Shown here: positions 12,801-15,800 of the stretch, piece after piece
Position numbering within the stretch: position 1 is the first letter of the stretch
How the letters are laid out: every line of letters begins with the position of its first letter
Assembly: GCF_032362555.1 (NCBI RefSeq)
Contig: NC_083529.1
Coordinates: 7,192,001 to 7,256,000, forward strand
DNA from: Amyelois transitella
Taxonomy: Eukaryota > Arthropoda > Insecta > Lepidoptera > Pyralidae
Direction of reading: 5' to 3'
Length of the DNA stretch: 64,000 nucleotides
Notes under the pieces: generated by a model
The model's input: the letters and a program-made list of their open reading frames with translations, nothing else
Told to the model about the DNA's origin: nothing
The model's database searches: none
Program-made: the position numbers and the translations under genes

Positions 12801-15800
12801 TATACACAGGAACAATACATACGTTTTTTTTAATATTGTATGAAAGATCTTACAAAACATTAAGTAAGGTTTGAGATTATACTAAGAATTAAGTTTACGT
12901 CAATCAATCATATACGGGACAAATTACACAGATTGAGTTAGCCTCGAAGTGAGTTCAGACTTGTGTTACGAGATACTAACACAAGGATACTAAATTTTAT
13001 AATAAATACTTTTATAGATAAACATCCAAAACCCAGGCCAATCAGAAAAAGTTATTTTCTCATCATGCCCTGGCCGGGATTCGAACCCGCACTACCGCTG
13101 CACCACAGAGGCCAACAAGAAATATTACAAAAACAAATCACTTGCAATGACGGACTTATCCCATGAAGGGATCTCTTCCAGTCAAACGGCAAACAATATA
13201 GGAACTAAATAATTAAGTAAAAAGCGGCAAGTCACTATGTTTTTAGCAACAATATAATAATAAAGTAACAAATTCAAATAAAATAATGATAGTGTTGTTC
13301 GCTCTTTTTTATTTTTAATTGTTTACTGATCTGATGTGAAGGAAGATGTAGTTACAGGAATAGAAAAGGGTATGTTGAGATGGTTCGGTCATGTGGATGA
13401 ATGAAAACAGGTTGACTAATCAGATATACAAGGAGAGTGTGGAGGGAAAGGTTGGAGTGGGAAGACCTAGACGAACGTATCTTGATCAAATTAAGGACGT
13501 CCTGGTAAAGAGTCAGGTCAAAAGTACCCGAAACCGCCGAGCCTGCATGAAGAGAGTTATGAATGTGGATGAAGCGAAGGAAATATGCAGAGATCGTGGC
13601 AAGTGGAAAGAGGTAGTCTCTGCCTACCCCTCCGGGAAAGAGGCGTGATTTTATGTATGTATGTATGTATTGATCTGATCAGTATTCAGGTTCCTATTAA
13701 TTAACGATGAAATAAATACATAGTAATATTTTCCTATTTTTTTCCGTAGCCGGGCATGCCTGTATATGGACATAGCTGATGCGGCGCTCGGGAAACTACT
13801 GCTGGTGACGACGGCCGCGATTTTCTGCCTCATCGTGTTGTGGGTCAACACCTACCCCTTCTTGGATAAAGGTGATTGATTGTTCTATAATGTTTACACG
13901 GTAACGACATGTTTTGTTACACAATAAAACAAACGAGAAACACAACGTCAGAAGAATCAAAACTTGCTGTGTATAGATTTTGTATTTTTTATTTAAAAAA
14001 CATACATATAGTCACGTCTATGTTCCCTACGGGGTCGCTGTCTAGCTTTATAATGAGATTCAAGGTTGCTGGCCCATCATCGCTTACATGGAAAAAATGT
14101 AATGTATTAAAATTTTACAAAATGCCAAAATCTAATTTTTAAACCCATAGGTTTGTACTGTGCGTTATATTTCAGTCAGCCAATCAATCGGTTTTCTATT
14201 TTAGTATATAGTTGGTAATATAGATTTTATTATACGTACCGTACATACATACATAAAATCACGCCTCTTTCCCGGAGGGGTAGGTAGAGACTACCTCTCT
14301 CCACTTGCCACGATCTCTGCATAGTTCCTTCGCTTCATCCACATTCATAACTCTCTTCATGCAAGCTCGGCGGTTTCGGGTACTTGATTTTATTATATAT
14401 TTCACAGATTTATACGTAACAAGCCTAGTGCCGGATCCACAGTGGTTCTTGGTCGCGTGCGCCGTTTGGGGGCTGTGCTTTGTCGGGGGTCTCATGTCGT
14501 TCACTCTCTACCACGTCTACCCGTATCTGTGATCAGCGGTAACATGGCCCAGTTCAATAAGGACGAGTGGATCGTTATCGGTGAGTTTTCTTCTCTTTAT
14601 TCATATTGTTTCACAGATTTATACGTAACAAGCCTAGTGGCGGATCCACAGTGGTTCTTGGGGGCTGTGCTTTGTCGGGGGTCTCATGTCGTTCACTCTC
14701 TACCACGTCTACCCGTATCTGTGATCAGCGGTAACATGGCCCAGTTCAATAAGGACGAGTGGATCGTTATCGGTGAGTTTTCTTCTCTTTATTCATATTG
14801 TTTCACAGATTTATACGTAACAAGCCTAGTGCCGGATCCACAGTGGTTCTTGGGGGCTGTGCTTTGTCGGGGGTCTCATGTCGTTCACTCTCTACCACGT
14901 CTACCCGTATCTGTGATCAGCGGTAACATGGCCCATTTCAATAAGGACGAGTGGATCGTTATCGGTGAGTTTTCTTCTCTATTTTTTATCCCTTTATATT
15001 CAAATTCAAAATTTTTATTAATTATTATAGGATACTTCAGATCGCTTAATAATTGTCAAAAACTTTTTGTTTCACAAAATTGGTTGTCGTCAAATAAATT
15101 ACTTAAAACTAAGTTTACTGCCGCTTTCAAGGCGTCAGTGCAGAAGAAGCGGTAACAAACTGCACTGCAGCATTTTCTTCAACAACGTCAACTTCACAAA
15201 TATCCAAACTTAGAATAGAATGTACATACATATAATCACGTCTATATCCCTTGCGGGGTAGACAGCCAACAGTCTTGAAAAGACTCATAGGCCGCGTTCA
15301 GCTATTTGGCTTTAAGATAGTATTGAGATTCAAATAGTGACAGGTTGCTAGCCCATCGCCTTAAAAGAAGAATCCCGAGTTTATAAGCCTACCCCTTAGT
15401 CGCCTTTAACGACATCCATGGAGAGAGATGGAGTGGTCCTATTCTTTTTTCTATTTGTGCCGGGAACCAAACGGCGCAGGTAAGATAGTTAACAAAATAC
15501 AAAAAGTTTAATCCCACTCCTGACATATCAGACTAATATAATCCAGATCATTCTGACACGTGTCTCTCTCTTACGCTTTAATTTATCTCTTTTTGTTATT
15601 CCTCTACTTGTCAGTAGTAAGGTTGAATCCAATATTGTTGTTTATTGTTGGTCTCATGTCGTTCACTCTCTATAAAAGAGAGAATTTTTTTTTTAATTTT
15701 GCAATTCTTTTATTAAATAAATCTTGTTAAAGCCTTACTGGCTCTGTAATCCCGTTATTAATTTATTCCTTATAACTTTATAAAAAATTTCTATTAAATA

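What the first reader, a model, noticed from the sequence alone, without database searches (positions are those of the whole stretch)
14408..14964. Triplicated shared exon in which copies 2 and 3 would fuse DPM2 to NMRK in frame
Copies start at 14408, 14617 and 14809 (spacings 209 and 192). Copies 2 and 3 lack the same 17 nt, which shifts DPM2 past its stop and into the NMRK frame through a linker of about 25 residues (starting [11 protein letters not shown], ending VISGN) before the NMRK Met. If DPM2 exon 1 (donor 13872) is spliced to copy 2 or 3, the product is the first DPM2 membrane segment fused to a complete riboside kinase; splicing to copy 1 gives two separate proteins. Exon choice could thus toggle between a dicistron and a membrane-anchored kinase. 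Copies 2 and 3 have long pyrimidine tracts before their acceptors, while copy 1's upstream intron has been disturbed by a LINE insertion.
Basis: partly seen in the sequence, partly recalled or inferred. Interest (0 to 1): 0.88.

Follow-up and report, generated by a model that had tools for sequence, protein, structure and literature searches.

The report
Tandemly copied shared exon in moth
In a moth genome, an exon that ends one gene (DPM2) and starts the next (NMRK) has been copied into a three-unit tandem array; the array is there in the sequence, but the DPM2-NMRK fusion it could encode is expected about one time in three by chance, and the array looks like a known kind of splice-site minisatellite.

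Summary
In detail: three near-identical copies of a 173/156-nt exon (14408-14580, 14617-14772, 14809-14964), copies 2 and 3 lacking the same 17 nt, and fusions of 280-344 aa in frame if DPM2 exon 1 joins copy 2 or 3. The source is very probably the moth Amyelois transitella (100% match to its annotated NMRK1 isoform X2). The toggle is not supported. The NMRK frame runs open through the DPM2 exon here and in nine other database ORFs, so about 33% of simulated 1-30 nt deletions give the fusion. All 12 splice paths through the array encode a normal 205-aa NMRK; the 8 using acceptor 1 keep DPM2. The gaps between copies are only 36 nt. The annotated NMRK starts with copy 3's MAH and has no fused N-terminus; no Amyelois fusion was listed in the protein searches. 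Both arrays resemble 'mirages', amphioxus splice-boundary minisatellites reported not to disturb regular splicing. Best reading: mirage-type minisatellites in an old DPM2-NMRK dicistron; the fusion is an occasional by-product at most. No RNA was seen.

The parts
13766..13871 (+). DPM2 coding exon 1 (start codon to donor; first membrane segment)
   Evidence: Pfam PF07297 on the spliced 76-aa protein
14408..14580 (+). Copy 1 of the shared exon (173 nt): intact DPM2 C-terminus, stop 14530-14532, 11 nt, NMRK ATG 14544-14546
14581..14616 (+). 36-nt gap with GT..AG ends between copies 1 and 2; open in the NMRK frame
14617..14772 (+). Copy 2 (156 nt, lacks 17 nt): DPM2 frame runs into the NMRK frame
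14773..14808 (+). 36-nt gap between copies 2 and 3, identical to the first
14809..14964 (+). Copy 3 (156 nt, same 17-nt deletion); carries MAH instead of MAQ, the start of the annotated NMRK1 isoform X2
15650..15672 (+). 23-nt exact fragment of the shared exon in the next intron
15881..16229 (+). NMRK exon 3 (P-loop)
18219..18345 (+). NMRK exon 4 (only acceptor of the exon-4 array, plus its first copy)
18262..19218 (+). Second array: 107 nt x 8.9, each unit the last 84 nt of exon 4, its donor and 23 nt of intron; nine donors, only donor 1 gives full-length NMRK
20164..20268 (+). NMRK last exon with stop
13522..13665 (+). Repeat arm upstream of DPM2 exon 1 (97% complementary to 14242-14385)
14242..14385 (-). 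Same repeat inverted; ends 22 nt before exon copy 1

Best explanation
The window holds a DPM2-NMRK dicistron, very probably of the moth Amyelois transitella. Its shared exon, with both splice sites, and the 3' part of NMRK exon 4 with its donor have each been amplified into a tandem minisatellite like the 'mirages' of amphioxus. For the first array the likely history is: one duplication, a 17-nt deletion between TTGG repeats in the extra copy, then duplication of the shortened copy (inferred). DPM2 is made from mRNAs that enter at acceptor 1 (follows from the frames); NMRK is made from its own strong-context AUG, probably by leaky scanning past DPM2's weak AUG (inferred). Donors 1 to 3 can all serve, because every repeat unit is a multiple of three and open in the NMRK frame; entry at acceptors 2 or 3 would give a DPM2-NMRK fusion as a minor by-product (inferred).
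For: Two arrays in one gene, both at splice boundaries, with copy-specific substitutions. The mirage precedent: tandem repeats over exon-intron boundaries in amphioxus Adh3, globin, TnC and PGBD5 genes, reported or inferred there not to disturb regular splicing (passages of PMC3087553, and PMC3902484). Of 12 paths, 12 encode 205-aa NMRK and 8 keep DPM2, all 8 using acceptor 1. Gene pair in relatives: 9 of 19 database proteins with at least 16 aa before the kinase block carry the DPM2 exon read in the NMRK frame, 0 of 500 shuffles each. DPM2 and NMRK have neighbouring names PYW07_010648 and PYW07_010647 in Mythimna separata. AUG contexts: DPM2 ctgtatATGg, NMRK ggtaacATGg. Fusion frame in 1080 of 3285 simulated deletions; NMRK frame open in 69-85% of synonymous versions.
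Against: No RNA evidence was reachable, so no splice path is shown. The annotated isoform X2 starts at copy 3's Met, so copy 3 is used in at least one gene model, while amphioxus mirages are said not to interfere with regular splicing. The exon-2 array repeats a whole exon with both boundaries; the cases in the passages I saw repeat one boundary or the other. The source assembly could not be searched (genome search did not complete), so an assembly or haplotype origin is not excluded. Eight of the nine ORFs that carry the DPM2 exon stop at or run past the exon 3 donor and may be genomic, so only P0009 looks like a spliced dicistronic RNA.
Confidence: 0.7

Rival explanations
1. Acceptor choice is a real toggle: acceptor 1 gives the DPM2 + NMRK dicistron, acceptors 2 and 3 give an NMRK anchored by the first DPM2 membrane segment. 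A repeat-derived RNA hairpin around exon 1, ending just before acceptor 1, pushes splicing to acceptors 2 and 3.
For: In-frame, open fusion of 280-344 aa in 4 of 12 paths. A predicted stem of the 144-nt arms encloses exon 1 and ends 22 nt before copy 1 (z -17 from 20 shuffles). Slightly richer pyrimidine tract at acceptors 2 and 3.
Against: The fusion frame arises in 1080 of 3285 simulated deletions. No Amyelois fusion was listed in the two fusion-query searches (120 of 194 hits shown, best first, none), though the region search also failed to return the known joined model P0003 and no Amyelois transcript source is listed for P0001. Annotated X2 is the plain 205-aa kinase. Joined DPM2-NMRK gene models in Brenthis (P0003) and Glossina (P0119) suggest that gene callers join such neighbours; their DNA was not examined. 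If the first segment keeps a cytosolic N-terminus, the kinase would face the ER lumen (inference; topology recalled, not tested).
Confidence: 0.05
2. The copies are an assembly or haplotype artefact: one exon copy in the animal, or alleles of different length written in series.
For: Copies are 99% identical; the amphioxus BflGb6 mirage was itself aberrantly assembled in a genome draft (supplement legend in PMC3087553).
Against: Copies carry their own substitutions and a shared 17-nt deletion; the exon-4 array has nine units with a patterned G/C site and a private T in unit 5. No N in 64 kb across a 957-nt array points to long reads (inference). A 23-nt exon fragment lies in the next intron. 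A winter moth NMRK model has the same exon-4 segment three times.
Confidence: 0.15
3. All three copies are kept in one 557-nt exon (acceptor 1 to donor 3), giving DPM2 plus NMRK with an N-terminal extension of 64 or 128 residues from the earlier Mets.
For: The 36-nt gaps are shorter than the 40-50 nt 'ultra-short' class measured in Drosophila (PMC5762160, passage) and are open in the NMRK frame. X2 starts at copy 3's Met, so its model uses donor 3 (inferred).
Against: The annotated X2 protein is 205 aa, not 269 or 333 aa; no such longer Amyelois protein was listed.
Confidence: 0.1

Closest known systems
Amphioxus 'mirage' minisatellites (Adh3, globins BflGb6/BflGb9, TnC, PGBD5)
   Same: Short tandem repeats spanning exon-intron boundaries, duplicating splice sites, inside ordinary genes; reported units of 10-160 bp (passages)
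   Different: Here in an insect; units of 107 and 192 nt; the exon-2 array repeats a whole exon with both splice sites; the exon is shared by two cistrons; two arrays in one gene; RNA behaviour not shown
Dicistronic gene pairs of Drosophila (159 in FlyBase release 6.04; passages of PMC4528330)
   Same: Two unrelated proteins apparently from one mRNA, with a short gap (11 nt here)
   Different: Whether Drosophila itself has this pair was not settled (the main text of that paper has no CG12016, a gene name recalled for fly NMRK; its gene list was not readable); here the shared exon is multiplied
Tandem exon duplication with mutually exclusive exons (Dscam, nAChR alpha6; names from search listings, and recall)
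   Same: Neighbouring copies of one exon with intact splice sites
   Different: Those copies are diverged and encode alternative versions of one segment (recalled); these are almost identical and copies 2 and 3 have lost the DPM2 frame

Membership tests
Mirage minisatellite | Tandem repeat units span an exon-intron boundary and contain splice signals | tested here: met
   Exon-4 array: 84 nt exon + donor + 23 nt intron per unit. Exon-2 array: whole exon with both boundaries.
Mirage minisatellite | Copy number varies between haplotypes | not testable with these tools
   One sequence only; own-genome search unanswered.
Mirage minisatellite | Repeats do not disturb regular mRNA splicing | tested here: inconclusive
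   Annotated NMRK X2 is full length with one exon 4, but its first residues are copy 3's, so the extra copies are not ignored in that model.
Dicistronic gene | Both reading frames lie in one processed mRNA | tested here: inconclusive
   Shared exon here; P0009, a full-length kinase ORF on a 1485-nt contig, continues into the DPM2 exon, as a spliced dicistronic RNA would. No RNA of this species seen.
Mutually exclusive tandem exons | Each copy encodes a working alternative of the same protein segment | tested here: not met
   Copies 2 and 3 do not encode the DPM2 C-terminus; the NMRK part differs by at most one residue.
DPM2 (PF07297) | Pfam profile above its cut-off | tested here: met
   Copy-1 product 29.1 bits against 27.3; the fusion product 24.4 bits, below the cut-off.
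Nicotinamide riboside kinase | Similarity to a solved NRK1 over nearly the whole length | tested here: met
   NRK1 2p0e, E 1.9e-35, residues 9-195 of 205.

The most novel reading that the evidence does not exclude
Acceptor choice within the exon-2 array, biased by the hairpin that hides acceptor 1, really switches this moth between a DPM2 + NMRK dicistron and a membrane-anchored riboside kinase, so that a minisatellite expansion has just created a regulated gene fusion.
Probability: 0.05. Interest if true: 0.8.

Novelty: new variant of a known kind. Interest (0 to 1): 0.42.

Why it matters
It would extend splice-boundary minisatellites, which the papers I found describe in amphioxus, to an insect, with two of them in one dicistronic gene, one covering a whole exon shared by two proteins. 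The exon-4 array has very similar limits in a distant moth, which makes NMRK a candidate hot spot. It also shows how an open overlapping frame makes accidental gene fusion cheap: nearly any deletion of 3n+2 nt in the DPM2 part fuses the two proteins. It may help explain why few DPM2 proteins came up while dozens of moth and butterfly NMRKs did.

Tried and rejected
Toggle tested against chance: simulated deletions of 1-30 nt in the DPM2 part of copy 1; 1080 of 3285 give the fusion, all of them 3n+2 long (1080 of 1095 of that class), so the frame alone is weak evidence. Synonymous-codon test: the NMRK frame is open in 13776 of 20000 (uniform) and 16994 of 20000 (own codon usage) draws. A first run of this test read the NMRK codons one base out of frame for the codon table and gave 0.86 with own usage; one search replaces it. 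The 36-nt gap is open in the NMRK frame in 64% of letter shuffles. Branch-point scan: no strict CTRAY motif within 60 nt of any of six acceptors, only loose ones, so it did not separate the acceptors. A search with the fusion's first 78 residues gave 41 candidates and none below 0.001; since it did not return P0003, it is insensitive. The DPM2 search gave 2 proteins from 2 candidates, which suggests but does not prove that DPM2 is under-annotated. Annotated isoform X1 of Amyelois was not seen; that it is a near-identical member of P0001's two-sequence cluster is a guess. Structure prediction was not tried. Paper searches aimed at a DPM2-NMRK pair or at dicistrons in moths and at splice-boundary minisatellites listed nothing that, by title and abstract start, describes either in moths; most subscription papers are not in the library.

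Full report
What is there. The window's NMRK exons encode a 205-aa protein; the best hit, 'nicotinamide riboside kinase 1 isoform X2' of Amyelois transitella, is 100% identical over the kinase part, 73% of my fusion query (P0001), so the window is very probably from this moth (Pyralidae). DPM2 exon 1 is 13766-13871; the shared exon occurs three times, at 14408-14580, 14617-14772 and 14809-14964; NMRK continues at 15881-16229, 18219-18345 and 20164-20268. Copy 1 carries the DPM2 stop at 14530-14532 and, 11 nt later, the NMRK ATG at 14544. The spliced DPM2 passes the Pfam cut-off (29.1 against 27.3 bits) and the kinase matches solved NRK1.

The triplication. Copies 2 and 3 lack the same 17 nt, next to a TTGG microhomology; copy 2 has a P-to-A codon and copy 3 a Q-to-H codon. 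The copies are separated by identical 36-nt gaps with GT..AG ends. Drosophila introns of 40-50 nt are already called 'ultra-short' and splice slowly (passage of PMC5762160), and the shortest human ones named in the passages I saw are 43 nt (PMC4463651), so splicing of 36-nt introns is unlikely, though not impossible.

What the splice paths make. Of 12 possible combinations of acceptors and donors, all 12 encode the plain 205-aa NMRK from its last Met; the 8 that enter at acceptor 1 also encode intact DPM2; the 4 that enter at acceptor 2 or 3 encode a fusion of 280, 280, 332 or 344 aa. Paths with several copies could also give NMRK with 52-128 extra residues. DPM2 thus depends on acceptor 1, and the NMRK frame is safe whichever site is used. 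Skipping the exon altogether would also join exon 1 to NMRK exon 3 in frame.

Is the fusion more than chance? The NMRK frame is open through the whole DPM2 part of copy 1, so nearly any deletion of 3n+2 nt there makes a fusion: 1080 of 1095 such deletions, 1080 of all 3285. The open frame is itself expected in 69% (uniform codons) to 85% (own codon usage) of synonymous versions. It is also found elsewhere: of 19 database proteins with at least 16 aa before the kinase block, 9 carry an N-terminal part that aligns with the NMRK-frame reading of this DPM2 exon, each with 0 of 500 shuffles as good (scores 38-86, P0064 the weakest). The linker therefore was probably not evolved as a linker; it is the out-of-frame reading of DPM2's last exon.

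The dicistron. These nine ORFs place a DPM2 exon upstream of NMRK in other sequences. Only P0009 reads on to the end of the kinase, on a 1485-nt contig, and so looks like a spliced transcript; the other eight (P0054, P0055, P0056, P0058, P0059, P0060, P0061, P0064) stop at the exon 3 donor or run past it and may be unspliced or genomic. In Mythimna separata the two proteins have neighbouring names, PYW07_010648 and PYW07_010647. Gene models that join DPM2 to NMRK exist in Brenthis ino (P0003) and in Glossina (P0119); this suggests the neighbourhood reaches flies too, and that gene callers may join such pairs (their DNA was not examined). DPM2's AUG context is weak (T at -3) and NMRK's is strong (A at -3, G at +4), which fits leaky scanning; this is inference.

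A second array. NMRK exon 4 has its last 84 nt, its donor and 23 nt of intron repeated in 107-nt units, 8.9 copies at 99% (18262-19218). Position 6 reads G,C,G,C,G,C,C,C,C down the nine units and unit 5 has a private T. Only donor 1 gives full-length kinase; donors 2-9 give 178 aa. Three of the ten TRF rows of the window score above 1000, and all three lie in this gene (the third is a 136-nt intronic satellite, 17322-18066); the next score is 180. A 23-nt exact piece of the shared exon also lies at 15650. P0010, an NMRK model of the winter moth Operophtera brumata, repeats RRCFRLYDPPDIAGYFEQCVWPEHVKYKAE + VGLTRCSRS three times with small changes, i.e. about 90 nt of the same exon and 27 nt past its donor. 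Of the 122 proteins held, it alone repeats an 8-residue word. Shared or separate origin was not testable.

What it most resembles. Amphioxus globin, Adh3, TnC and PGBD5 genes carry 'mirages', tandem repeats over exon-intron boundaries, 10-160 bp per unit, in some cases variable between haplotypes; the authors report or infer that they do not disturb regular splicing, while noting that their splice signals could give aberrant transcripts (passages of PMC3087553 and PMC3902484). The exon-4 array matches this description; the exon-2 array is a variant that repeats a whole exon. Copy-number polymorphism and normal splicing could not be tested here.

Evidence about use. P0001 begins MAHFNKDEW; of the three copies only copy 3 encodes MAH. 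So at least one gene model uses donor 3, and its protein has no DPM2 part. How that model begins cannot be seen. No fusion and no 269-333-aa kinase of this species was listed (120 of 194 hits shown, best first, so such a protein should rank near the top). No transcript-type source is listed for P0001 (ncbi, uniref, nr only), so the silence on fusions is weak.

What favours the toggle. The repeat at 14242-14385 is 97% complementary to 13522-13665, and the region 13500-14450 is predicted to fold with a long stem that encloses DPM2 exon 1 and ends 22 nt before copy 1 (-423.6 kcal/mol; 20 shuffles mean -234.6). If the upstream arm is transcribed, this could hide acceptor 1's branch region. The same repeat occurs at many other places in the window (16 BLAST rows including itself), so the pairing may be accidental. 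The pyrimidine difference between acceptors is small.

Verdict. The sequence observation is right and the neighbourhood is more unusual than reported, but the fusion is something chance would give about one time in three, and nothing seen shows it is made. I file it as a new variant of the mirage minisatellite in a dicistronic gene.

Noticed in passing
18262-19218: 107-nt x 8.9 array of NMRK exon 4's 3' part with its donor; nearly the same segment is repeated three times in an Operophtera brumata NMRK model (P0010).
   Followed up: partly
17322-18066: 136-nt x 5.4 satellite at 87% matches in NMRK intron 3, just before exon 4: a third array in the same gene.
   Followed up: no
13522-13665 and 14242-14385: Inverted pair of an abundant repeat forms a predicted long RNA stem around DPM2 exon 1.
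   Followed up: partly
13756-13779: An upstream ATG (G at -3) opens a 7-codon frame overlapping the DPM2 start, if that stretch is in the mRNA.
   Followed up: no
50801-53026: 741-aa open frame with OCRE and G-patch domains (Pfam), resembling RBM5/RBM10 splicing factors (name recalled).
   Followed up: partly
41394-42203 and 58680-59693 (- strand): Two long open frames (269 and 337 aa) without any Pfam match at 0.001.
   Followed up: no
P0119, P0003: Glossina and Brenthis gene models that join DPM2 to NMRK, hinting that the gene pair is older than Lepidoptera.
   Followed up: no
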